A stretch of 24,995 nucleotides of DNA from a virus. Below are positions 1 to 16,980 of this stretch, in pieces (the stretch's first letter is position 1; each line of letters begins with the position of its first letter). The translations under genes were made by a program, and so were the position numbers. Under the pieces are notes generated by a model. The model was not told where the DNA came from and searched no databases. It saw only the letters and a list, made by a program, of their open reading frames with translations. The stretch lies in the IMG/VR virus record IMGVR_UViG_3300006737_000194, positions 1 to 24,995 of that record. The stretch is one strand, 5' to 3'.

Positions 1-3000
1 ATAAGTCTTTTACTTCTTCTTGATACTGTACGTCTAAAGCTATTCTTACTCGACCAATAACTTTTTTAGATGCCGCTCTTACAGAAGCATTAGTATGACC
101 TTTAAATACATTTATACCAGACACCATCTGTTTAGATGAAGTTGCTGTTTCTGCATTTTTATCTAATTCTCCTTGTACACCAAAAAATCTTCCATCATAC
201 CCATACAAATCATTACTCTCGTCATAAGAGTATTTGTTAATAAAATTGTTAATAGCGTCTTCTCCTTGTTTAGACAAAGCACCCCACTCTTGTAAACTTA
301 ACATGTTTTGCGAAGTTCCCTCAGCTCCTTTTATAGAGCCTTTTTTAATACCGCTACTTGCGTATCCTAAAACGTTTACACCATTAAGCTTATTTGTTTT
401 GTAAAACTTTTCTCTTGCTTTTAACGATTTATATATAGCTTTAAAAGGACCTTCAGATGTTTCATTAACTACAATAGTGTGCCCTTTTGCATAAAAAGAG
501 TTACGCTGCTGACCGAACATTCCTGATATAGTCTTGTTGTCTATATTAGTTCCATATCCTACAAGCTTAAAAGAACCTTTTACATCTACTATATCACCAT
601 GCAAAGCAATAAGTTTATCAGCTGCCTCTTGCGTCATAACAGAAGCAGAATCCATAATTGCTGGATTGTCTGATAAATTAACTTCTTTTATGACAGCTTT
701 AGGCTTTTTCCTTATAACATTATAAGGATAGTCTTTATCTTTCACCCAAGTTTCTTCGTCAGTTTCATAAGCAAGAACTTTTACTTTTTGCTTAAGGTCT
801 TCCTGACTAAGTTCTGCATCTTCAAAAACCAAAAGCTCTACTCTTTCACCTGCATAACTTGCATCGTGATTTGCTATATAACCAGTAGACCTTTTATTCT
901 TCATTGTATAGTCTTGGTCTTCCATGATAGAAGATGACATATCCTGAAGGTAGTATTTGTTTATAAAGTAGTTTGCACCTATTAAACCAGCATTACCAGC
1001 AACACCTGATTGGCGCATTAGTTTTTCGGTTGATTTTTCTATATCTTCATAGTTAGATAAATCATATGTAACGCCATCAATTTTTAACTCAAAAGCTTTT
1101 TTACCTAATAAATTAAGTTGTCCTTTTTTAGTGTGACCTTCATTATTGGTTTTGTTAATTTCATAGCCTTGCGAGCGTAATTCATTTATTACAGATACAG
1201 AAGTTACAAGATGCATATCAAACTCATCAGACTCATCATTATGTCTATCTATAATAGATTGAGTTTTTACCATGTGGTAATCAACCAAATCTTTGAGTTT
1301 AGACTTTGCTTCTGCTTCAGTTTTAATAGTAAAAGCATCTGAATAATATCGTCTAGTTTTATCAGAAAAATCTCTAACAGGTTGCATGTACATATTTGTA
1401 CCTGAACTAATAGCACTTGCTATTTCTTCTATATCCATTACAGACACCTCTCTGTTAGTTATCTCATCTCTATCAAGGTTATTGTTTATATCACCGTCTA
1501 AAGAATGATAATCTAACTCATACTCACCGCTTGCTATTTTTTCTGCATAAGGATTAGTTATACCATATGTAAACATAGATATAAAACTTTTTGGTTTTTC
1601 CTTATAGTAATCTAACATAGCATCGCGCCCATACTTTAAATAATACTTTCTAATGTTTTTATTAAGCATGTTACCTTTTGGCGACATTATTGTATATAAG
1701 TATGCTTTATTTTCTGCAGGAACTTTTGTGCTTAACAATGCTTTAATTGGGTAAGAAACGCCCTGCATATCTGCAAAGCTAAAGTTTACACTTCCGCCCG
1801 ATATAAATGACTGTAAAGAAGCTTTTTGTTTATACTTATAAATTTTCACTTCTTTGACTTGATGACCTCTAGCAGTTTTAGAAATCTCAAGCTCTTGTAC
1901 ATCATTGTTTTTGTCTCTTAAAAAGAATCTTTTAACCTCTTCGTTAAATTCAGCTGGCGCTCCTTTATCATAGTATGTTTTATATATTGCTTTGTCTGAT
2001 TTAATTACACCGACATCTTTTCTATTTATAACATTATAAGGGTAATCTTTATCCTTTACCCATTGATTTTCATAATCAAATACTAAATGTTCTCTTTTAA
2101 TAGTATTTTCTTTAAACTTATTGTAATCAAATTTTTCTTGCGCGTAAGATGCTTTAATGTTTTCTGCAAATTGTTCTTTTAGTCTAAGAGAAGTTCTATA
2201 ATCTATATTATTGACTACTACGCCAAGATTAGCAGAATCAGATAGATTCTTTTTTACCATCAAGTTATCGAATATAGGATTAAACACATCATTAATAGCT
2301 TCTTTTTGTAAATCTTCTAATGATATATTTTCTTTTTCTTTTTCTGTAATACTAATAGAAACGCTATCCCACAACATACTTTCTAGTTTTGCTCTACTAA
2401 AATATTTTGTTATAGGCATGTAGTTGCCATTTTCATCTTTTATTGTTAAATTATTATATTTTGTTTCGTCTAACGACTCACCTGTCGGAAGTAAGTACTT
2501 ATTTATAAAATCTCTTTTTTCTACTTCTTGTATTGTTTGCTGACCATACAAAAGCTGTACTAATTTTCTAGAATAATTTAATCTTTTTTGCACAGCTGAC
2601 CATACCTCAATATTTTTCTCATCAACGTTTTTTCTGTTGTATAAGTCGCTTTGATATATATTAATAAACTTTATTTTTTCAGGCTTTGACGCACCACGTT
2701 TATAAGCAGCTTCTTCTTCGTAAGAAACCATAACATCTTCTTTTGCTGAAGATATTCTTCTTCTTAATTGCATACTCATAGAAGGACTAAATCTTTTACC
2801 ATCCCACATTAAACCTTTATCAGTAGTCATAGACCTAAACTGTAACATTACATTCTTAAATATATTGTTACCTGAGCCATCTACTTCTGTTTGTAGGTAA
2901 TCAAAAAAGCCTCCAAGTATTATTCTACCTGTCTGTGCTTTACTAGGATTTTCTATTTTAGTACGAGAAAAGCTGATAAACTGTTGAGCCTTTTCAGTAA

Positions 3001-6000
3001 ACTCCATTGGTGTTGGATGTTTTTCTTGAAAAGTTTTAAGCAAATACATTATGTTTGCCTTATTAATTTGAGCTACAACTTCAGGATTTTTATTTCCTAT
3101 ATACTTTTCGTTTTCTATAAACTGTCTTACATGCATGTAAAATTTAGCAGCAATATCTTGGTGTTCACCATTAATTAAAGCTACTAAAGCATTATCATCC
3201 ATTTCAGACATCTCTTCTTCAGTAAACAAATTAAGCTGTAAATCATCTTTTGATACTGCAGCACTCAAGAACATCTGTCTTATGTATGCATCTATCTGCT
3301 TATTGTTATCTCTAAGAGCGTTTCTTACATCTCTATACTCTTGCGTTCCTTCAGTGTAATTAAGCAGTAGATTAGCCTTAAACTTTTCTTTTGCTCTTCT
3401 AAATTCTCTACTAGACATTAACATGGCTTTTTTGTTTGCCATGATTTCTTCACGAGTTGCTTCTTCTAACTGCTCAGCAGTTAATAAATCTTTTTCTATA
3501 GTTTTATAAAACTCTTTTGCATCTTTAACAATAGTTCCTTCTGCGCTAGTAATTTCTTGTTCTATTTGCGACAACAACTTATCGTTTTTAAGTTGTTTGA
3601 TTTTTACTGTAGAAGGAGATTCTTTTGCTAAGTTACCATACTCAGCTTCGTGATTAGCTATTAAATCTTTTATACCATCAAACGCAGCCTCAAAGTCAAA
3701 CTCATCTGTTTTCTTGTATTGATTGTTAGACGCTTGTTCTAATGTCCAATCAGACTCTTCTTTAGTAAATGCTTTAGATATTTTTTCTTTCCAAGAAAGC
3801 ATTGACTTATTGTAAGCTTTACGCTTTTCTTCATCTGCTAAAAACAAATCTTGGTTGTATTCACCATATATACCAGCGAGTTTAGTTAATGCCTCGTCTT
3901 GTATATTAACTTGTTCTTGTGCCGCTAACTCTGTGTAATTGTTTTTATTTAACACATCTAACGACTCTTCATAAAAATCTTGATAAGTTTGTGGAGTTAC
4001 ATTTTCTATAGACTCCATTTCAATATACTCATCTATAGTAGTTGGTATAACTGCACCAGTACGTTTTTTAATTAAGCGTAACGCATCTTCTTGTCTTATG
4101 TAAGCTTTCTCACCTTTTCTTGCTGGAGCTGCGTAAATAATGTTTTCTTGATAATCAAGTTTGGTTTTATTGTATATAGGTTGATTCACTATATGCTTCA
4201 TCATCTCTTGTACCTCTGGATAATTAGCATACAGCACTCTAAATATATGGAAGTTCTCATGGAAGAAAGCTTCGTCTTTAGCGTCTCCATCTGTATTAAT
4301 GAATACACTCATACCTGCAGCATAACCCGCAAACCTTGGCCCTTGTTTTGCAAGAGCAATAATACCATTTACTGACACTAATCCGTCAGCTGCTTTTTCA
4401 GATAATAAATCAATTACTGCATTTTCAGAACCATCAGTTAAAGGTATAGCCTTTCTTATTTTTCTTTTCATGTAGGCTCTTTCCATTACATCTATAATCT
4501 TACCTACATTTTCTTTTGTAAATGTTTTTTTAGTAAAACTTTTTGCAGCATCTTTTGCTAAAACTACAGAAGCTTTAGCTCCTTCTAAAGATTTTAAAAA
4601 TTTAAGTTTGATTTGCTCTGAACTATTAACACTACTTAAGGGTGTTTCTTTAATATATTTCTGTATATCTGATTTTGTTATTCTACCATTTTTTCCTGTA
4701 CCTTTTACTTTTGATAAGTCTATCTTATATTCTTCTGCTAACTCTTGAGCTTTTGAAGTTACTTTAGCTTTATCAACAGGCGGAACTTTTTCTTCTACTT
4801 TTGCCTCTGCTTTAATTATTTGCTCTACCTCTTCTGCAACACCTTGTCGCATTGCTTCTTCTTGTTTTGTAAGACCACGACCATTCATAATCTTATAAGC
4901 AATACGCTCTATTGTTTCTTTCTCTACTACACCTGAATCAACAAACTTATCAAACTCTGATTGTGTTTTTGTTTTGTTAATTTCTTCTGCTTTTTGTAAA
5001 GAGGCATCATCTTTGTTGGTTTCTAAGCTTACCTCACCTGTAGGTGACACAACAATAGCACTAATAGTTCCGTCTTTGTTTTCTTTAACAAACTCTACAG
5101 AACCATCTTTTTGTGTCTTTGCTGGACCATATTTAGCAAACTCTTTACGCCCAACAAACTCAGCAGCTTTATTAGTTCTATCAGCTTGTTGAATTACTTC
5201 TTTAGATTGGTTGTAAAAGTTTTTATTGTTTGCAATTAAGTCTTGTTCTTCTTGCGTAAGCTCTTGACCTTCTACTTCTTTTTGCGCTATATCAACAAGT
5301 TGTTTACCTTCTTCATTAGCAAACCTTTCTTGTTCTACTCGTGAATCAGCTTTTTTATATACCTCTGCTATTTGGTCGCTTGAAGCTTGTTTAATTAATT
5401 CTTCTTGCTTTATTGCTTGCTTTTCAGCTTCTTTTAATCCAGCTATTTCTTTATCAGCCCACGACTGCTCTTGCTTTTCTTCATCTACTAAAGATTGAAC
5501 CTCATCCATTCTTTGCTGAAACTCACCTCTTTGTTTTTGTAGGTTTGCAGTAGTAACATTATTTAACCAAGCGTTAGCTACAAGCTCAGCTTTTTCTTTT
5601 GTATTTAAGTTTTGTGTAGGATAATTTTGTACAGCAGCTTCAACTTGCGTTAAAGTTTCTTGATACATTTCAAATTGTTCTTTACTAATCTTACCTGATT
5701 CTACTTGCGAACCTAAGTATTCCATAATTACTTCAGACTCCCCATGAACAACAGCATTTTGTATCATTGTTCTTGCAGCAGTATCTCTACCTAACATGGT
5801 AGCTTGTTCAGCAGACAGCTCTACTAACTCACCATTTCTGTTTTTAAAGTTATATGTACCTGCGTCTAAATCTCTATTAAATATATCTAAAACTTCATGC
5901 GATTCTGCTTTATCATTTAAAGCTTTATTAATCATGTATCTGTTTTCTGCAGATGTATTAATAGTGTTACTTACACCAGAAATTAATAAGCTTGTAGCAA

Positions 6001-7228
6001 AAGAAAGTACACGAGTAGGTTTTTGTTCATCAGCCATAAAGAACTCCATGTAAGGAGTAAACTCTTCACCTTTTGCTTCCGCAATTCTTCTTTGAACAGA
6101 CCAGTCTTGATACACTTCTTGGAACTGCTCTATAACACCATCTGTTATACCGTTTGCAGCACCCATACCTAACGCTCTAAAACCATTCTTAACTGCAGAA
6201 CCAATACCCATATTTTTAAGAGGAGCCTGCGTTGCTTTTATACCAACCTTAGCAGCTGTACCTTTAATAACCTGTTTAGCTGTTTTAGCTAATGCACCAC
6301 CAACTCTTAACTGACCTGCAAATAAAGCCCACTGAGCAATTTCTGCACCCATAGATGCCAAGTTGTCTACATAAACTTGTCTTGCTGCGTTTTGTGCAAC
6401 CTTTGGGTCTAACCCCTGAAGTACACCTTCATTTAAAGTTTGACCTGCTAATGCAGCTCCTTCTATTAAAGTCTGTGTAGCACCAGCCGCTGTAGCTCCA
6501 ATACCTGCTTTTACAAGTCTCGTAGCATTTAATGTGTTTGCAACACCTTTAGACAAACCAATAGAGCGACCACCCGCTGCAATTCCTTTAGCTATATTAG
6601 CAAATCTAGCACCTTTAGTAAGAACTTGTGCGCCTTTAACTGCAGCCTGACCAGGTATTAATAACGATAAAGCAAACGGTAGCAAACGAGCCACTCCTGT
6701 TTCCCAAAACTCTACATCCGATAAAGAACTAAATTCTATATCTTCTAAGTCTTTTAATCCTGGAACATCATCTCCATAAGATTGTAGGTACTCACCAAAA
6801 TCATGAAATGCATCTGAAACTGGTTTATTCATATCTACACCATAAACTTGCTTTGCCACCATAGATGAAGGTGTTCCCCCTATAAAGTCTACCATATCTC
6901 CTACGGAAGTAAATAAGTCTCCAAAACCAACCATTAAAGATTTACCTATTTTTTCAACGTGTCCCATATCGTAATCAATACCAGGCTTACCTACTTCTGG
7001 TATGTCTGGTATTTGCATTCCCTCTGGTTGAGTAACGTCTGATTGCAAAGGACTCCACATACCATCATCTTTTTGCTGTTCAGGCTGTGGAGTTGTTACT
7101 GGCTCACTAGGTGCAGAAAGACCAGACTGTATGTCTGGTTCTTTAAAACTACTATCTAATGATTGGTCATATTCGTTTATACTTTCCTGTGGCGTGTTAA
7201 CGCTTGGATTCCAAAAATTATCTTCCAT
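1..7228 (-). CDS. Giant multidomain virion protein, putative packaged RNA polymerase (3' end outside window)
   Basis: One open frame starts at the ATG at 7228 and reads through at least 2409 codons to the window edge with no stop, so the C-terminus is missing. Seen in the translation: a Pro/Gln/Ser-rich linker (residues 1-90); an Ala/Gly-rich hydrophobic stretch (about 175-360), as in ejected phage proteins; Gln/Glu/Lys-rich helical sequence (about 450-720); an E3-binding-type domain (821-861); a zincin site HENFH (990-994) with a possible third ligand E1112; and a long region (about 1200-2409) carrying a duplicated WVKDKDYPYNVI. Around residues 2193-2222, DSASVMTQEAADKL followed by FKLVGYG resembles the first double-psi barrel of single-chain RNA polymerases (eukaryotic RDR, YonO, crAss-like). 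The catalytic DxDGD motif is not in the window. The start lies 2 bp after the preceding cargo gene. By analogy with crAss-like phages I infer a virion-packaged RNA polymerase; the polymerase call is moderate, the reading frame is certain. Confidence 0.85.
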   Translation of the reverse strand, partial: MEDNFWNPSVNTPQESINEYDQSLDSSFKEPDIQSGLSAPSEPVTTPQPEQQKDDGMWSPLQSDVTQPEGMQIPDIPEVGKPGIDYDMGHVEKIGKSLMVGFGDLFTSVGDMVDFIGGTPSSMVAKQVYGVDMNKPVSDAFHDFGEYLQSYGDDVPGLKDLEDIEFSSLSDVEFWETGVARLLPFALSLLIPGQAAVKGAQVLTKGARFANIAKGIAAGGRSIGLSKGVANTLNATRLVKAGIGATAAGATQTLIEGAALAGQTLNEGVLQGLDPKVAQNAARQVYVDNLASMGAEIAQWALFAGQLRVGGALAKTAKQVIKGTAAKVGIKATQAPLKNMGIGSAVKNGFRALGMGAANGITDGVIEQFQEVYQDWSVQRRIAEAKGEEFTPYMEFFMADEQKPTRVLSFATSLLISGVSNTINTSAENRYMINKALNDKAESHEVLDIFNRDLDAGTYNFKNRNGELVELSAEQATMLGRDTAARTMIQNAVVHGESEVIMEYLGSQVESGKISKEQFEMYQETLTQVEAAVQNYPTQNLNTKEKAELVANAWLNNVTTANLQKQRGEFQQRMDEVQSLVDEEKQEQSWADKEIAGLKEAEKQAIKQEELIKQASSDQIAEVYKKADSRVEQERFANEEGKQLVDIAQKEVEGQELTQEEQDLIANNKNFYNQSKEVIQQADRTNKAAEFVGRKEFAKYGPAKTQKDGSVEFVKENKDGTISAIVVSPTGEVSLETNKDDASLQKAEEINKTKTQSEFDKFVDSGVVEKETIERIAYKIMNGRGLTKQEEAMRQGVAEEVEQIIKAEAKVEEKVPPVDKAKVTSKAQELAEEYKIDLSKVKGTGKNGRITKSDIQKYIKETPLSSVNSSEQIKLKFLKSLEGAKASVVLAKDAAKSFTKKTFTKENVGKIIDVMERAYMKRKIRKAIPLTDGSENAVIDLLSEKAADGLVSVNGIIALAKQGPRFAGYAAGMSVFINTDGDAKDEAFFHENFHIFRVLYANYPEVQEMMKHIVNQPIYNKTKLDYQENIIYAAPARKGEKAYIRQEDALRLIKKRTGAVIPTTIDEYIEMESIENVTPQTYQDFYEESLDVLNKNNYTELAAQEQVNIQDEALTKLAGIYGEYNQDLFLADEEKRKAYNKSMLSWKEKISKAFTKEESDWTLEQASNNQYKKTDEFDFEAAFDGIKDLIANHEAEYGNLAKESPSTVKIKQLKNDKLLSQIEQEITSAEGTIVKDAKEFYKTIEKDLLTAEQLEEATREEIMANKKAMLMSSREFRRAKEKFKANLLLNYTEGTQEYRDVRNALRDNNKQIDAYIRQMFLSAAVSKDDLQLNLFTEEEMSEMDDNALVALINGEHQDIAAKFYMHVRQFIENEKYIGNKNPEVVAQINKANIMYLLKTFQEKHPTPMEFTEKAQQFISFSRTKIENPSKAQTGRIILGGFFDYLQTEVDGSGNNIFKNVMLQFRSMTTDKGLMWDGKRFSPSMSMQLRRRISSAKEDVMVSYEEEAAYKRGASKPEKIKFINIYQSDLYNRKNVDEKNIEVWSAVQKRLNYSRKLVQLLYGQQTIQEVEKRDFINKYLLPTGESLDETKYNNLTIKDENGNYMPITKYFSRAKLESMLWDSVSISITEKEKENISLEDLQKEAINDVFNPIFDNLMVKKNLSDSANLGVVVNNIDYRTSLRLKEQFAENIKASYAQEKFDYNKFKENTIKREHLVFDYENQWVKDKDYPYNVINRKDVGVIKSDKAIYKTYYDKGAPAEFNEEVKRFFLRDKNNDVQELEISKTARGHQVKEVKIYKYKQKASLQSFISGGSVNFSFADMQGVSYPIKALLSTKVPAENKAYLYTIMSPKGNMLNKNIRKYYLKYGRDAMLDYYKEKPKSFISMFTYGITNPYAEKIASGEYELDYHSLDGDINNNLDRDEITNREVSVMDIEEIASAISSGTNMYMQPVRDFSDKTRRYYSDAFTIKTEAEAKSKLKDLVDYHMVKTQSIIDRHNDESDEFDMHLVTSVSVINELRSQGYEINKTNNEGHTKKGQLNLLGKKAFELKIDGVTYDLSNYEDIEKSTEKLMRQSGVAGNAGLIGANYFINKYYLQDMSSSIMEDQDYTMKNKRSTGYIANHDASYAGERVELLVFEDAELSQEDLKQKVKVLAYETDEETWVKDKDYPYNVIRKKPKAVIKEVNLSDNPAIMDSASVMTQEAADKLIALHGDIVDVKGSFKLVGYGTNIDNKTISGMFGQQRNSFYAKGHTIVVNETSEGPFKAIYKSLKAREKFYKTNKLNGVNVLGYASSGIKKGSIKGAEGTSQNMLSLQEWGALSKQGEDAINNFINKYSYDESNDLYGYDGRFFGVQGELDKNAETATSSKQMVSGINVFKGHTNASVRAASKKVIGRVRIALDVQYQEEVKDL

Positions 7229-8973: not shown

Positions 8974-11021
8974 TATTCTTTAGTTTTCTTTTTTCTAGAA
9001 TTATTAGATGTAACAGTGTAATCCGTATTTTCTGAATCATACGTATCGTTACCCATATTACCTATAGTTTTTAAGGCATTCGTTGTTGCTTGGTCAATTA
9101 AATCCCTATTAGGGTTTACGTAATAACTTACATCACTTAAAGCGTCAGAAAGTAAATTAGTACCTATGCCACCAAGTAACTCTCTATTTTGAGCCATAGC
9201 TTGTTGTTTCATTTGCTCTGCAGTCATATCTCTATTTAATTGCATTTGACCAACTCGAGTAGCTAAATTATTAAAACCTTCTATATTTTGTCGTCTTACT
9301 GCCGCATCTTGTGCAGCTAATTGATTTAACCCTTGTATTCTATTTGCATCTACAGCACCTTGCCCTGCTAAAAACATACCTCTTTGACCACCAGAAGCTC
9401 TCAATACATTTTTCATGGCACCAGCATATGCATTGTTTAAATTTTGCATAGCAGCACCTTTTTCTTGTGCAGTCAAACCAGTCTTTGATAGCTGTCTTTG
9501 TTTATTTACCGCTTCTTCTATTAATGGAGATAATTCTGGAACATCTACTTCAGGGTCTCTTAAGGCTTTAGATAAAGACGTAATTCCTGCTGCAGCTTTT
9601 AAACCAGTTAAGGCTTTTTCAGCAGCACGCATTCTTTTTTGTTGTTGTAAGTCTGTAAGTCCACCACCACCATTTTCACCATCTTGACCATTTTTACCAT
9701 CTTGACCTTCTTCTTCAGATAAATAAAGTTTATTTAAGTCCTCTAAGCGTTTGTTATGTCTATCTAAAGCAGCTTGTCTATCTTCATCTGTAACACCTTC
9801 TTTTCTAATTCTATCAATTATAGCTTTTTCTTCTGCTAGTTTTTTTGCTATTTCTGCTTTTTCAACTGAATCTTCTGCTTGTTCTTTCTGAACCTCTAAA
9901 GACTCTGCTTCTTCAGTTTTTCCTGTTGTTCCTTCTGGAATTGCAACAACTTCTATTTCACCAGTATTAGGGTCCGTTACAACTTCTGATAAACCTGTAG
10001 CTGCGGCTGATGCATCTTCTAGTGCAGCCACTTCAGCTGCATTTATAATAGATTTATCACCATCGTTTAAAACCACTAAAGCGGCTTCACTTGGGTTTAC
10101 ATCTGGTATACTACCATTATCAGCGTCTTCTATATACTTAAGCTCTTCTATTGTTAATTCAAAAGGCGACGGACCTGTTGTTAAATCATGTTTTGAATTC
10201 TTTTTAGCTTTAAGCTTTAACCTTATAAGTTTATCTTGATTAGACTCACCATCAGGCGCTACATTTAAATCTGTATCAGCATCAGTCAAATCTGTTTCAT
10301 TCTGTCTTTGATTTTGAGCATCAGACTCACCTCTAATTTCTTTTAGAACATTTAAATTACTGGTTGAGTCATTACTAAACTGCATTTGCTTTAATTGCTC
10401 ATTACTATATTGGTCTTCTGGCTCTCTATATAAGTTAAGTCTTTTTAACCAACCTTGACCGTGTTTTGGTACAGTCCCTGAACCCATGTAAGATTTTTCT
10501 CTTCTGTTACTGTAAGCCGTGTTTACAGCCTCAGCACCTTTTTCATCTATAGCTTTATTTAAAGCAGTAATAGCTTTTTTATTGGTACCAAAATCTGTTG
10601 CACCATCTACATCATAACCTAACTCATTTAAAACATCTGCTAATGTATAATGAGTACCTTTACCCCCTAAAGTGTACTCTTGATTAATCATTGCATCGTA
10701 TATGTTCGCTGCAACTCTATCATCTTTTATTTTATCTAAATTGTACGTATTCCAGTATTGGTCTTTAAAAGATTTTTTTACATCATCTTTATTAACTTTT
10801 TCAAACTCTTTTTTTAGTGCGTCAAATTCTTTTTGAGTGGTTGGTTTTGTCTTTTTAGAATAACCAAGCCAATTTATAAATGTTTGACCATATCTTGTGG
10901 CAACAAAATTGTTTTTACCAGCTACTTCATAAAAATTACCCGTGTCACCTCTATCTGTAGAGATTTCACCTTCGTTTCCTTCGCTTAATTTATAAGCTTT
11001 ATCCCATGATGTTTCAGCCAT
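8973..11021 (-). CDS. Virion protein with N-terminal GH108-like lysozyme domain
   Basis: A 682-residue protein. The N-terminal ~170 residues resemble the GH108 (zliS-type) N-acetylmuramidase family: W6-D-K-A-Y, then NEGE with E17 in the place of the catalytic Glu of the EGG motif, D23-R-G-D-T-G as the D..G..T stretch, RYGQTF where the family has GIT, and later RVAANIYDAMINQE and a final R-R-x-x-Y-M-G. Residues 240-430 are acidic and helical. A short collagen-like tract GQDGKNGQDGENGGGG (439-454) follows. The last 230 residues are an Ala/Gln/Asn-rich helical region like those of ejected internal virion proteins. The likely role is local peptidoglycan degradation during DNA entry rather than host lysis, because the domain is fused to a structural part and sits among tail genes. 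It starts 2 bp after the previous gene's TAG stop. The catalytic E17 assignment is by motif, not proven. Confidence 0.8.
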   Translation of the reverse strand: MAETSWDKAYKLSEGNEGEISTDRGDTGNFYEVAGKNNFVATRYGQTFINWLGYSKKTKPTTQKEFDALKKEFEKVNKDDVKKSFKDQYWNTYNLDKIKDDRVAANIYDAMINQEYTLGGKGTHYTLADVLNELGYDVDGATDFGTNKKAITALNKAIDEKGAEAVNTAYSNRREKSYMGSGTVPKHGQGWLKRLNLYREPEDQYSNEQLKQMQFSNDSTSNLNVLKEIRGESDAQNQRQNETDLTDADTDLNVAPDGESNQDKLIRLKLKAKKNSKHDLTTGPSPFELTIEELKYIEDADNGSIPDVNPSEAALVVLNDGDKSIINAAEVAALEDASAAATGLSEVVTDPNTGEIEVVAIPEGTTGKTEEAESLEVQKEQAEDSVEKAEIAKKLAEEKAIIDRIRKEGVTDEDRQAALDRHNKRLEDLNKLYLSEEEGQDGKNGQDGENGGGGLTDLQQQKRMRAAEKALTGLKAAAGITSLSKALRDPEVDVPELSPLIEEAVNKQRQLSKTGLTAQEKGAAMQNLNNAYAGAMKNVLRASGGQRGMFLAGQGAVDANRIQGLNQLAAQDAAVRRQNIEGFNNLATRVGQMQLNRDMTAEQMKQQAMAQNRELLGGIGTNLLSDALSDVSYYVNPNRDLIDQATTNALKTIGNMGNDTYDSENTDYTVTSNNSRKKKTKE
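9660..9707 (-). other. Collagen-like Gly-X-Y linker in the lysozyme-domain protein
   Basis: Residues 439-454 of the 682-residue protein read GQDGKNGQDGENGGGG, about five Gly-X-Y triplets with one repeated unit (GQDG). It separates the acidic helical middle from the Ala/Gln-rich C-terminal part. It is too short for a stable collagen triple helix alone; a flexible hinge or a short trimerising segment are both possible. Confidence 0.6.
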
Positions 11022-11023
11022 AA

Positions 11024-12196
11024 CTATTTATGTTTCCAAGTTTTCATTTCTCTATTAACAAACTCTCCAACCTCATCAAATCTACCGCCTCTTAATAGCT
11101 TTTTAATATTATCCATTGCTGGTTTATCAAACACACCTTCACCACCTGTTAGCTCCATACCTGTATGGTTACCATTTTTATCTACTACAGCCAAAGGGTT
11201 AGTTGTGTGATTATATGCGCCTTGTGTCATACCACCAACACTATATTGTCTAACACTTCCATCTTTTGTGTGAAAGTCTACTTTCTTTAAACCTTCTTCA
11301 TCTAAATCCCATTTTTTCATAAACCATTTTTTCATATCAGCACCTCTACGAGAATAATCTATACCAATATTAGTTTGGTCTTGTCGTGCTGATATATTAG
11401 GCGTATAATTATATGATTCTATTTTTTTTATAGCAGCCTGTAAAACTTCAGGCTTCATTTTTTCTTTTGGTTTTTGCATGCTTGGTGGTAAACTTCCATA
11501 TTTATTAATAAGACTATCTTGATAGTTTTCACCATACATATCTATAAAATGATTTTTAGCTTCATTGTCTCTAAAATCTTTTACAGCATCATTAACTGAA
11601 TCACGTATTGTACTATCTAGTTTATCTTGAGGAGAAGTTATTTTACCACCATCTTTGTACCCAGCATAATCTTCCGATTTAATTTTTTGAAACTCACTTA
11701 AGTTTTCTTCTCGCTCTGCCTTTTGTTCAGCCTTCTTTTTTTCTTTTTGATATTTTTTCTTTTTAACAATACCAACCCCTAATCCTACAGCTGTTCCAAT
11801 AGCAGCACCGACAGGTCCAGCTTGAGCACCCATAGCTGTGTACTTAAGGGTTTCTTGAGCAATATCTGCGTTTCCATATCCAGGGTCTTTATCAAAAGCT
11901 CCTATAAGTTGACTTGCAGCACCTGCACCCATACTTGTAATACTACCCATTGCTTCGTTTTCCCAACTTGTTCCTTTTCTTAAAGTTGACATGTCATCTC
12001 TTGTAGGAGCTACAGAATTAGGGTCATTAGGGTCATACTCTTTCATCATATCTGCGTAGTTGCCCTGAAAAAAAGTTGGGTCTTCTCCTAGTGCAGAGAA
12101 AATACCACCATCAACATATTTTTTAGTTACACCTCCACCAAAGTATAACTCGTTAGCTAAAGCTTTTTCTTGCTCTAAAGTTAAATTTTTAATCAT
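11024..12196 (-). CDS. Putative internal virion / ejection protein with Gly/Ala-rich hydrophobic segment
   Basis: A 390-residue protein. Around residues 125-150 there is a Gly/Ala-rich hydrophobic segment (GAQAGPVGAAIGTAVGLGVG) followed directly by a run of basic residues (KKKKYQKEKKKAEQKAERE). That is a membrane-insertion-like pattern common in phage ejection proteins. The motifs YKDGGKI and ELTGGEGVFDKPAMDNI near the C-terminus are of a kind I associate with Bacteroidota phage virion proteins, but I cannot give a verified family. Its ATG overlaps the stop of the upstream 1595-residue tail gene by 4 bp (ATGA), implying translational coupling, and it ends in TAG. Its location after the tail gene and before the lysozyme and polymerase genes suggests it is carried in the virion and enters the cell with the DNA. 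That function is inference. Confidence 0.75.
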   Translation of the reverse strand: MIKNLTLEQEKALANELYFGGGVTKKYVDGGIFSALGEDPTFFQGNYADMMKEYDPNDPNSVAPTRDDMSTLRKGTSWENEAMGSITSMGAGAASQLIGAFDKDPGYGNADIAQETLKYTAMGAQAGPVGAAIGTAVGLGVGIVKKKKYQKEKKKAEQKAEREENLSEFQKIKSEDYAGYKDGGKITSPQDKLDSTIRDSVNDAVKDFRDNEAKNHFIDMYGENYQDSLINKYGSLPPSMQKPKEKMKPEVLQAAIKKIESYNYTPNISARQDQTNIGIDYSRRGADMKKWFMKKWDLDEEGLKKVDFHTKDGSVRQYSVGGMTQGAYNHTTNPLAVVDKNGNHTGMELTGGEGVFDKPAMDNIKKLLRGGRFDEVGEFVNREMKTWKHK

Positions 12197-15100
12197 GTTG
12201 TAATTCTATTATGTATTAAAGCACCAAATAACTCTATTTTACCTGAATCACTACTTTGAATTGAAATACTTAAATGCTGACCAGTAGCTTTACCCGTTCC
12301 GTCTGTACTTGTTATTGGTATTATGTGCTTTCCATTTACCATTTTTTCTCCTGTTCCTGTCGAAATTATAGCAGTATTGCTTACTGAATCTCTGAAGATA
12401 AAATTAGTGAATTTTTTTGAGTTTTCATTTCCAGATAAATACAACACTAATTTATCAAAATGCTTTGATTGATATATGTTTTCATTACATACAAATGTTA
12501 AATTTATTGAGTGATTATTTTCACTTCCATAAAACATTTTAAAATTAGAATTACTATTTTCTTGATATATTTTAGAAGCATCAATTGTATTTGCACCAGC
12601 ACTTCTTCCAACAGTATATAATTCTCCTGGTAAATTAAAAGCTAAAGCTATTGGGTCTTGTTTTTGCGTAACCATTATATCGTTTAACTCACTGTAAACT
12701 AAATGTAATGAGCCAAAGAAATTATTCTGGGTTGTTACACATAAACCTACTTCATCTAAAATTTTATTATAATATAAGCAAACACCGCCTTTTGAGTAAT
12801 CCAAAGGACTATCAAATACTGGTGCGCTTTTTAATTGATGTAATAAAACTGAATTTTGTGTAGTTAAACCTAAGTCTTGAACAAGTATACCTTGACCATA
12901 AGATAGCTTGCAAAAAGCAGACATGTTTTTATCAAACCAATAAGCTGCTGTATTTGTAACTATTGTGTTATTAAAGTGTTGACTACCGTATGTTGTATCT
13001 ATATAGTCGCTTCTTTCAATTACTTGACCAGTACCTGTAGCAATCATTACTGCGGCTGCATCAGTATTATCAACAACCACCCTCGGGTTAATAGTTAATT
13101 TAGCAACACCAGATTGCTGTAGTGCAAATAAATCACCTCTTAAATTAAATAAATTATATATTGGACCTTTACCAGTTTCTAATTCATGTATCTCACTTGC
13201 GTCCCATGTAGTATAAGCGTCAAAAAGATTTCCTGCTAATTTTAAATTAGAAGCAGCAATTAAATTACTATAAGTATTTACATCCTTAAAGTTTGCTGGT
13301 TTTTGAACATAAGTTTTAGAAGTGTTTTGGCATCCATAAGTTTCATTTATAAGATTGTCATCATATATAGTATATTCCATATCATCAGATGAACCTAAAA
13401 AAACTCCATCTCGAAGGTCTAAATTTATAGAAGATTCAACTGGGTATACAATACCCATAGCAGGATATGCAGCAGTACCAGAACCGCTACCACTTGAGTG
13501 TGCTACTTTCTTTTTAGCATACATATTTATAAACGTATCACCACCAAAAACAGAATCAAAATTTGAGCTTTGTGGGTTAAAGTTTACATGGCCTGTGTTT
13601 ATATATTGATTATTTTCAAAAGCAGCTTCTGAATTACCACCGTATTGACTACCCTCTACATTCCTTACAAATTGAACATACAACTTTTGAGCATAAAGTT
13701 TTAGATTAGGACTGTTACCATCAAAATTAAGTATAAAAGGATTTTCTAATTCACTTCCAGTACCACACTCAAAGTCTTCTGGTAATAAATCTGCAGCACT
13801 TTCGTTAGCTGTACCCTCTAATGATAAAAACATAGTTGGAGCACCCCAAAGATTATTGTGATGACCTGCACCATCACCAACATCCCATTTCTCATCTGAA
13901 GGTGTGTCGCTTGCATATCTTAATTGGTCATCACCACCATTCCAAGCAAGCCTGATTTTATTTTTAAAATTTTTATGTATAGAACCAGAATAACTTCTAT
14001 CTCTACGAGAATTTCTTAAATCACTAACTGTCCCTCCTTCTGCTACGGTTTCTGCGTGATATATAGGAAATACTTTATTAGAAGTTGCTACATCTCTAAC
14101 GCAATAAGTACTTTGAAAATATTGACTATATATTGGATATGTAGAAAATTGAAAAGTCTCTTTGTTATCCGTAGCCGCATTTGGGTCAAATCTTCCTGCT
14201 AAAAAATAAGGTTGATTAGTAGTAGTCCCATTATAATGAGCGTATTGTTTTATGTTATTTAAAGGATGAGAGTCATTTGGGTCTATATTTTCAAATTCTA
14301 CGAAATCTTCATTATAATGAGAATAAGTACCATCTAACCTTGCAACTACTTTTATTTTATCACCAGTCCTTTTATTATAAACAAATTTACCAAAATATGG
14401 TTCAGGAGTGTCACAAGTAAAATTTGTGACATGAAAAGATTGGTGTGATTGAAATGGAGTAAAATTAGTTACACTAGAAGGTCCGTTCAGATGCCTCATA
14501 GAACCTGATGAGGAATTATTTGCATGAATCTGGTTTTGATTTATTACACCACTTGCTAAAATTCTTTTATCGTTTTCACCCCTTTTAACTCTAACAATAG
14601 CATACCCACTTATTTTACTTCTAACATCTTCAGATAATTTAACATGAAATTGAGGATATATTGCATATCCAGAAACAGAACTTAATGGTTTATCAAAAAA
14701 TAAAGTCATTCCTGCGCCAGGACTACCAGCAGTTGTATTTTGAGAAATTGTAATAGTGTTCGCAGTAACAGTAGTTATATACGAGCCTTTTGGTATTCCG
14801 CTAGTATCAATAGACCCTGTTACCAATTCACCAACAACATGGAGGTTTCCCTCACCTGTTTTGGTTAAAACATTACTTCCACTTGAATAAGTCCATCCAG
14901 AGCTTATTCCTGGAGTAGAACCACAATATTGAAAAGTTTTTACTCCATCTGAATTTGTTACTATTCTGGTACCTGACGAATTATGACTTTCAAATTTCAT
15001 TTCATTGTCAGGCATTCGAACATCACCTATTGGACTAACAAATGTTGGGTTACCTGATTTATCATAAAACAAAATACCAAAACGATATACTTCACCTCTT

Positions 15101-16980
15101 TGGTATCCTACATAATCTTTTGCAAAAATTGGATTTTTATAATTATTATATCCACCATTAAATGTTTTATCTAAATACCCATAAAGAGGAACATCATTAA
15201 GTGCACTATGCGCTTTGTCATTATTGCTTCCAGTTCTTGCACACCTTCCATTTCTAAAGTAATCAACTTCAGATAAATCAAGTTCTTTAACATTAAATGT
15301 TACTCTAACTCCATTATCTATATTTTCAAAATCTGGTGTTTCAGCGCCAGGAACTTTTGTTTGGTGAGTTGTATTTATCCAAGCATATTGATTTTGTTCA
15401 TAAAAACTATCTTTATACAAGTCTTCATTTATATAATTATCATATGTTTCTGCTGAGCCGAATCCGTCGGTTCCAAATCTGTAAGATTTAACTCTAAAAT
15501 CTACATCTATACTTTGTGCATTATTTGTTAAATTAGAAGCAAATAATCTGTTATTTTTAATAGCTAAATCTTTACAAGTATCCCAACTAACATTATTTCT
15601 TAATAAATCTCCTATAGATATACCAACAGTAGTTTCGTTACCATTATGAGTGTATGTAAAAGACGAACCCGATATAGAAGCTTCTGTTATTATATTAGCC
15701 TCTATAGCTCCTTCAGAAGAAGTGTATCTTATATTTATAACCTGAATAGAAGTATAAGACTCGTCTATGTTATTTATAGTTAAAGTAACTGAATTTGCTG
15801 AATTTTCCGATAAAGGTCCTCCAGTTAATTTATGATATTCAGTATCTAATGTTGTTTTTGCTACATGTACAGGATTAGTTATCTGTGAAGTTCTAGATGT
15901 TTTACCATCTTGTGTAATTAACCTATAACAATACGAATGAGAGCCACACAAAACTATACCACCAGGAATTACTGAATTAACAATAGGGGCTTTTAATTCT
16001 GCAGATTTAAAAACATTTAAGTCCTCTGCAGTAATACCTACATAATATCCTGGGTCCTCTTTAAGGTTTATTGTTCTTAATGGATTAACACCGTCCGTCC
16101 AATATATTCTATGAAAATGTTCATTTTCTTCTGAAACCTCTATTCTCAATGAAGTTTTTGACGACAAACCTAAATCAGTTTGTAATATTACTTCTTGAGT
16201 AAACAGCTGACCATTTTCTAATGGTGTAATTTTCCAAATAATATCTTGCTCTCCTGATGTAGTAGATTTTGCTATAACAGCAACATAGTCTGAAAAATTA
16301 GCTACCCCAACAACTTCTTGAGTTAAAGATGATAAAATTTGTGACGACTTACCGTTACCATCTGTTAATGATATGAACTGTGGGTTATCCTCGGTTAACA
16401 TATATTGAATCTCAAAACCGAGAGTCATTGATACGTTTGTTTTGTTTATATGTGTAATATTAATACCATTATCAGTAACCGCAAAACTTACACCAAGAGT
16501 TAATTTTTCTGCTACTTCTGGAATATCCATAGCCTTTGCACAAGCTAAGTACAAATAATTTTTATAATGAGCACCCATACTCAAAACAAAGTTATTGTAA
16601 CCTACATTAGAATTTGTCGCAGAATCAAAACCTATATGTACAACTTGTGTTGTAAAACCAGTTCCTGATATTGTTAATCTAGCCCCCATAATAGCAGACT
16701 GACTATAACCTACAACGTTTCCATCCAAATCTTCAGTTGTTTGTATAGTGGAATTTGCTGTTAAACTTGTTATGTTGATAAGATGTCTAGAGCAACTAAA
16801 TTCTAAAGTCGTAAATTCAGTATTACCTTGTGCATTTTTTAAAACAAAGGCATTGTCTTCTCTTGTAAATATTCTACCGTTTGTTAAAAGTTTATATGCG
16901 TCATTTGGTAATAAATTATTATCCAAATCAGACTGCATACCTTTTATAAAATTATTGGGTTTTTTAGCTGGTTTCGACAT
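12193..16980 (-). CDS. Large tail protein, P22 gp10-like 'stabilization' / crAss muzzle type
   Basis: A 1595-residue, beta-rich, Gly/Asn/Ser/Thr-rich protein. The N-terminus (NNFIKGMQSDLDNNLLPNDA, then YKLLTNGRIFT) is the pattern seen at the start of the large tail proteins called tail stabilization protein (P22 gp10-like) in crAss-like phages and muzzle in the crAss001 virion structure. Its size, by far the largest tail gene, and its place directly after the tail tubular gene fit that role: it would form the distal part of the short tail. Residues about 705-763 look like a separate small beta module (finding listed). There are no enzyme motifs, signal peptide or membrane segment. It starts 3 bp after the stop of the tail tubular gene and ends in TGA overlapping the next start. 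Confidence is good for a tail structural role, lower for the exact family. Confidence 0.8.
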   Translation of the reverse strand: MSKPAKKPNNFIKGMQSDLDNNLLPNDAYKLLTNGRIFTREDNAFVLKNAQGNTEFTTLEFSCSRHLINITSLTANSTIQTTEDLDGNVVGYSQSAIMGARLTISGTGFTTQVVHIGFDSATNSNVGYNNFVLSMGAHYKNYLYLACAKAMDIPEVAEKLTLGVSFAVTDNGINITHINKTNVSMTLGFEIQYMLTEDNPQFISLTDGNGKSSQILSSLTQEVVGVANFSDYVAVIAKSTTSGEQDIIWKITPLENGQLFTQEVILQTDLGLSSKTSLRIEVSEENEHFHRIYWTDGVNPLRTINLKEDPGYYVGITAEDLNVFKSAELKAPIVNSVIPGGIVLCGSHSYCYRLITQDGKTSRTSQITNPVHVAKTTLDTEYHKLTGGPLSENSANSVTLTINNIDESYTSIQVINIRYTSSEGAIEANIITEASISGSSFTYTHNGNETTVGISIGDLLRNNVSWDTCKDLAIKNNRLFASNLTNNAQSIDVDFRVKSYRFGTDGFGSAETYDNYINEDLYKDSFYEQNQYAWINTTHQTKVPGAETPDFENIDNGVRVTFNVKELDLSEVDYFRNGRCARTGSNNDKAHSALNDVPLYGYLDKTFNGGYNNYKNPIFAKDYVGYQRGEVYRFGILFYDKSGNPTFVSPIGDVRMPDNEMKFESHNSSGTRIVTNSDGVKTFQYCGSTPGISSGWTYSSGSNVLTKTGEGNLHVVGELVTGSIDTSGIPKGSYITTVTANTITISQNTTAGSPGAGMTLFFDKPLSSVSGYAIYPQFHVKLSEDVRSKISGYAIVRVKRGENDKRILASGVINQNQIHANNSSSGSMRHLNGPSSVTNFTPFQSHQSFHVTNFTCDTPEPYFGKFVYNKRTGDKIKVVARLDGTYSHYNEDFVEFENIDPNDSHPLNNIKQYAHYNGTTTNQPYFLAGRFDPNAATDNKETFQFSTYPIYSQYFQSTYCVRDVATSNKVFPIYHAETVAEGGTVSDLRNSRRDRSYSGSIHKNFKNKIRLAWNGGDDQLRYASDTPSDEKWDVGDGAGHHNNLWGAPTMFLSLEGTANESAADLLPEDFECGTGSELENPFILNFDGNSPNLKLYAQKLYVQFVRNVEGSQYGGNSEAAFENNQYINTGHVNFNPQSSNFDSVFGGDTFINMYAKKKVAHSSGSGSGTAAYPAMGIVYPVESSINLDLRDGVFLGSSDDMEYTIYDDNLINETYGCQNTSKTYVQKPANFKDVNTYSNLIAASNLKLAGNLFDAYTTWDASEIHELETGKGPIYNLFNLRGDLFALQQSGVAKLTINPRVVVDNTDAAAVMIATGTGQVIERSDYIDTTYGSQHFNNTIVTNTAAYWFDKNMSAFCKLSYGQGILVQDLGLTTQNSVLLHQLKSAPVFDSPLDYSKGGVCLYYNKILDEVGLCVTTQNNFFGSLHLVYSELNDIMVTQKQDPIALAFNLPGELYTVGRSAGANTIDASKIYQENSNSNFKMFYGSENNHSINLTFVCNENIYQSKHFDKLVLYLSGNENSKKFTNFIFRDSVSNTAIISTGTGEKMVNGKHIIPITSTDGTGKATGQHLSISIQSSDSGKIELFGALIHNRITT

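What the first reader, a model, noticed from the sequence alone, without database searches (positions are those of the whole stretch)
713..2062. Perfect 12-residue internal duplication WVKDKDYPYNVI, 438 residues apart
The same 12 residues occur at 1723-1734 (DNA 2027-2062) and 2161-2172 (DNA 713-748). The DNA copies differ at only 4 of 36 bases, so the match is more likely a recent duplication or gene conversion, or a strongly selected motif, than chance. Both copies are followed by a similar K-x-x-x-VIK stretch. They may be two equivalent structural elements of the polymerase region or a repeated partner-binding motif.
Basis: seen in the sequence. Interest (0 to 1): 0.72.

Follow-up and report, generated by a model that had tools for sequence, protein, structure and literature searches.

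The report
Same peptide inserted twice in polymerase
A marine crAss-like phage carries an identical 12-amino-acid peptide inserted at two places in the RNA polymerase part of a giant protein, whereas its relatives lack it; the peptide has stayed the same although its DNA has drifted, so it probably does a job, but which job is unknown.

Summary
The closest relative found (G001, 77% identical over all 2409 residues) lacks BOTH copies. Only three indels of 4 or more residues separate the two proteins, and two of them are in-frame inserts (19 and 14 residues) carrying this peptide. At the second site all 16 relatives examined lack it, so that copy is a derived insertion; at the first site only G001 is alignable. 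No other copy was found in this window, in about 90 related loci, in viral or bacterial contig collections, or in phage records. All four base differences are synonymous (4 of 6 synonymous sites, 0 of 30 non-synonymous). That fits an older event followed by purifying selection rather than a recent duplication or conversion. "Polymerase region" holds: relatives carry an invariant DLDGD motif, a profile match to phi14:2 gp66 ends at its catalytic DFDID, and both predicted models rank 6VR4 first. The second copy extends a beta-hairpin; the first lies in a low-confidence loop. Best reading: one short cassette copied into two loops of a virion RNA polymerase and kept for a shared contact. Origin and function are inferred.

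The parts
2..7228 (-). Giant ORF, first 2409 residues (cut by the window end); relatives' complete ORFs are 4050-4283 aa
2027..2062 (-). Copy 1 of WVKDKDYPYNVI (residues 1723-1734)
2009..2065 (-). Stretch absent from G001 at site 1: QWVKDKDYPYNVINRKDVG (19 aa, 57 nt; ends placed by alignment, uncertain by a few residues)
713..748 (-). Copy 2 of WVKDKDYPYNVI (residues 2161-2172)
707..748 (-). Stretch absent from all relatives at site 2: WVKDKDYPYNVIRK (14 aa, 42 nt; placement may shift by 1-2 residues)
2..2791 (-). Region (residues 1480-2409) corresponding to the N-terminal part of phi14:2 gp66-type virion RNA polymerase, ending before the catalytic DLDGD of relatives

Best explanation
In the lineage of this marine crAss-like phage a short coding cassette (about 12-14 residues, WVKDKDYPYNVI) came to be present in frame at two surface loops, 438 residues apart, of the RNA polymerase module of a giant virion protein. 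Shown: the closest relative lacks both copies and all relatives lack the second. Inferred: one copy was templated by the other (template switching or illegitimate recombination, with no mobile-element hallmarks), or both came from one unseen donor. The event was not very recent; since then synonymous sites have drifted while the peptide stayed unchanged. Inferred function: each copy is a beta-hairpin-tip extension that makes the same short contact, either with one partner at two points of the polymerase or with another cargo subunit or template. That would explain why two separate sites keep one sequence.
For: Exact repeat far above chance. Two of the only three indels of 4 or more residues between window and G001 over 2409 residues are these inserts, and both carry the same 12-mer. 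At site 2 sixteen relatives lack it, in a hairpin whose tip varies in length. No relative's giant protein shows a comparable non-low-complexity internal repeat. pS 4/6 and pN 0/30 between copies; window-G001 pS 0.535; age bound. Predicted strands 91-94 and 101-104 of the insert continue hairpin strands 79-87 and 107-115. Polymerase identity: invariant DLDGD in relatives; hhalign to phi14:2 g066 1209-1369 ending at DFDID, E 1.9e-5, prob 78%; 6vr4_A top hit for both models, Z 8.0 and 8.3, with colinear ranges 368-901 and 876-1102.
Against: Only one close relative polarises site 1; more distant relatives are unalignable there. Only 12 codons: 4 of 6 synonymous sites has a 95% interval of 0.22-0.96, and the repeat was noticed because the peptides match, which biases pN towards 0. 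If the two copies came from already diverged donors, the age argument fails. The insert has low model confidence at both sites (pLDDT about 60-70 at site 2). No partner and no third copy were found, but most of this phage's genome is not in the window.
Confidence: 0.5

Rival explanations
1. Neutral templated duplication: one insert was copied to the other loop by template switching and has simply not yet changed at the protein level; no function.
For: Both sites are loops that tolerate length change; both native sites share a short TGTNATNAA-like stretch (the xVIK strand), which also resembles the insert's right end and could have served as microhomology.
Against: Four synonymous and no non-synonymous differences: 6 synonymous vs 30 non-synonymous sites; by hand calculation about 0.4% if four transitions fell at random.
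Confidence: 0.2
2. Ongoing or recent gene conversion keeps the two copies alike.
For: High local DNA identity (32/36) inside flanks that do not match.
Against: The synonymous difference is as large as between species; conversion would have erased it. The shared tract is very short for homologous conversion.
Confidence: 0.06
3. Both inserts come from a third source: another gene of this phage or a host gene carrying the same motif, acquired twice.
For: Would explain synonymous differences without great age; the window is an incomplete genome.
Against: No match to the degenerate peptide patterns in viral contigs, bacterial and archaeal genomes, phage records, or six frames of about 90 related loci. 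Records very near the window may be left out of those collections.
Confidence: 0.15
4. Both copies are ancestral and were lost in G001 and all other relatives.
For: Synonymous divergence between copies is similar to the window-G001 divergence.
Against: Requires clean loss at site 2 in every lineage sampled.
Confidence: 0.05
5. Assembly artefact or chimera.
For: Metagenome assembly, a single contig.
Against: Both inserts are in frame, the copies differ at four bases, the flanks are colinear with G001 on both sides, and the longest exact shared DNA stretch is short.
Confidence: 0.04

Closest known systems
[quoted passage not shown]
   Same: Colinear fold matches of residues 1480-2409, profile match ending at the DxDxD catalytic motif, and the same place in the gene order downstream of the muzzle gene.
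   Different: Here the polymerase module is part of one giant ORF (about 4100 aa in relatives) whose N-terminus resembles phi14:2 g067, with DLDGD instead of DFDID. The repeated peptide has no counterpart in the relatives examined.
Rickettsia palindromic elements (short in-frame insertions in coding genes; from own knowledge)
   Same: Short DNA added in frame to protein genes at more than one site.
   Different: No shared palindrome or hairpin in the two copies, no dispersed copies in other genes, and shorter (42-57 nt).
Lineage-specific insertions in surface loops of RNA polymerases (general class, own knowledge)
   Same: Insertions in loops of the catalytic subunit confined to one lineage.
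   Different: Two loops received the same peptide, which I did not find described in the papers searched.

Membership tests
Crassvirales (crAss-like phages) | Crassvirus major capsid protein, muzzle and tail ring proteins in conserved order | tested here: met
   Crass_capsid 1.2e-27, crAss_MUZ 1.7e-117; CrAss_Ring_1 7.8e-27, CrAss_Ring_2 1.8e-20
crAss-like virion RNA polymerase (phi14:2 gp66 type) | DxDxD catalytic motif | tested here: met
   Invariant DLDGD at about residue 2450 in all relatives' giant ORFs, including G001; the window itself ends before it
crAss-like virion RNA polymerase (phi14:2 gp66 type) | Fold of the solved structure 6VR4 | tested here: inconclusive
   6vr4_A ranks first for both models with colinear ranges, Z 8.0 and 8.3, but high rmsd and no Foldseek E below 0.001
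crAss-like virion RNA polymerase (phi14:2 gp66 type) | Transcription activity and presence in the virion | not testable with these tools
   -
Palindromic in-frame elements (RPE type) | Palindromic DNA able to form a hairpin | tested here: not met
   The two copies fold differently and share no hairpin
Palindromic in-frame elements (RPE type) | Copies dispersed in many genes | tested here: not met
   Only two copies in the window and none in related loci
Ancient internal domain repeat | Longer diverged homology around the copies, present in relatives | tested here: not met
   Masked self-comparison not significant; relatives lack both peptides

The most novel reading that the evidence does not exclude
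The peptide is a portable interaction cassette: a phage duplicated a functional 12-residue hairpin-tip into a second loop of its virion RNA polymerase to create a bivalent contact with one partner (a host factor, another cargo subunit or the promoter DNA), a route to new polymerase regulation by copying a short motif rather than a domain.
Probability: 0.2. Interest if true: 0.7.

Novelty: new variant of a known kind. Interest (0 to 1): 0.45.

Why it matters
Lineage-specific insertions in RNA polymerase loops are common, but the same peptide placed in two loops of one polymerase and kept unchanged while its codons drift is unusual. It gives a precise testable handle: two deletable 14-19 residue inserts whose natural 'absent' state exists in a relative. 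It could show how a virion-packaged polymerase gains partners, and how short in-frame cassettes spread inside a phage gene.

Tried and rejected
Chance: rejected. RNA or DNA hairpin element: the two copies do not share a structure. Longer diverged repeat: not significant when the peptide is masked. Source in known phages, viral contigs, bacterial and archaeal genomes or PDB: none; PHROGs, NCBIfam and Pfam gave nothing for the insert region. Direct scans with the C-terminal sequence found only G001; the tail ring protein was a better bait. Foldseek alone gave no significant hit for either model. Whether the two loops lie near each other in space could not be judged (pTM 0.40). Literature searches for a comparable double peptide insertion found nothing relevant.

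Full report
WHAT WAS CHECKED. The 12 residues WVKDKDYPYNVI are encoded at window 2027-2062 and 713-748, both on the minus strand, at residues 1723 and 2161 of an ORF that covers 2-7228 and runs off the window end. The DNA copies match at 32 of 36 bases; the four differences are third-position synonymous changes. Shuffled versions of the protein never gave an exact repeat above 7 residues, and a degenerate core of the DNA is found only at these two places in the window, with none expected.

WHERE IT LIES. The window belongs to a crAss-like phage: major capsid, muzzle and two tail ring proteins match Crassvirales families. The giant ORF follows the muzzle and three cargo-like genes, as do g067 and g066 of Cellulophaga phage phi14:2. 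In relatives it is complete at 4050-4283 residues and carries an invariant DLDGD near residue 2450, just beyond the window's end. A profile of the relatives matches phi14:2 g067 near its N-terminus (E 1.2e-6) and the catalytic polymerase subunit g066 at 1209-1369, ending just past its DFDID motif with DLDGD and DFDID aligned (E 1.9e-5, probability 78%). These E-values are for single pairwise comparisons. Two AlphaFold2 models, of residues 1480-2409 and 2070-2409, both rank phi14:2 polymerase 6VR4 first in the structural second look (Z 8.0 and 8.3), with ranges 368-901 and 876-1102 that are colinear with the profile match. Each line is weak alone; together they make a polymerase module likely. 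In phi-crAss001 the corresponding proteins are packaged as cargo and thought to be ejected into the host (PMC10172136).

THE KEY RESULT. The nearest relative found, contig IMGVR_UViG_3300030207_001308 (G001/L003), is 77% identical over the whole 2409 residues and lacks both copies as clean in-frame gaps: 19 residues at site 1, 14 at site 2. Only three indels of 4 or more residues separate the two proteins, and two of them are these inserts. Using the conserved tail ring protein as bait I reached 44 related contigs, and then sixteen relatives with the polymerase region. At site 2 none has the peptide; the site is the tip of a hairpin whose length varies. So copy 2 is a derived insertion. At site 1 only G001 can be aligned with confidence, so polarity there rests on one relative. 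No relative shows a comparable internal repeat; the only others of 7 or more residues are low-complexity or a single chance match between different genes. The VIK after each copy is native to both sites, since G001 has it too.

AGE AND SELECTION. Between the copies 4 of 6 synonymous sites and 0 of 30 non-synonymous sites differ; between window and G001 the whole gene gives 0.535 and 0.13. If the copies arose from one another at a tenth of the age of the species split, seeing 4 of 6 would have probability 0.0008; at a quarter, 0.017; at half, 0.12. So the event is probably not recent, and the peptide has probably been held by purifying selection. Limits: twelve codons, ascertainment on identical peptides (partly offset because the insert at site 2 is itself only 14 residues long), and the assumption of one shared origin.

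MECHANISM. In the smaller model the inserted residues form two short strands that prolong an existing hairpin (strands 79-87 and 107-115; insert strands 91-94 and 101-104), at modest confidence. Site 1 is in a low-confidence stretch. I take the peptide to be a hairpin-tip or loop extension making the same contact at two points of the polymerase. The insertion is shown, selection is likely, and the contact and the copying route are inferred. There is no shared palindrome and no other copy in any collection searched, so a known kind of mobile element is not supported. The most likely route is a short templated duplication or two acquisitions from an unseen donor.

VERDICT. The 'recent duplication or conversion' reading is not supported, and 'selected motif in the polymerase region' is. 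It is a new variant of a known kind of lineage-specific insertion in a known kind of polymerase.

Noticed in passing
window 4247-4261 (-), residues about 990-994: HENFH (HExxH) motif in FFHENFHIFR, kept in all eight giant ORFs examined: a zincin-like metallopeptidase motif in the same polypeptide as the polymerase. The N4 virion polymerase is also reported to have an HExxH motif (PMC12633501).
   Followed up: partly
window 4661-4747 (-), residues 828-856: E3-binding (peripheral subunit-binding) domain of 2-oxoacid dehydrogenases inside the giant phage protein (9.8e-11); also in L089 (1.4e-8) but not reported in L082.
   Followed up: no
window 2-7228 and relatives L082, L083, L085, L089: The giant ORF (about 4100 aa in relatives) looks like a fusion of phi14:2 g067-like and g066-like (polymerase) proteins.
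   Followed up: partly
L085 and L086: Giant proteins 89% identical but differing by large unrelated segments (161, 106 and 166 residues): apparent domain swaps.
   Followed up: no
window 10683-10976 (-): Glycosyl hydrolase 108 match near the N-terminus of the 682-residue protein (7.8e-6): possible virion muralytic enzyme.
   Followed up: no
window 12193-16980 (-): Muzzle protein only 45% identical to G001 over its main part while most neighbouring genes are 70-90% identical: probably fast-evolving host contact.
   Followed up: no
window 1829-2728 (-), residues 1501-1800: Fastest-evolving stretch of the giant protein (dN 0.36 against 0.09-0.16 elsewhere); copy 1 lies in it.
   Followed up: partly
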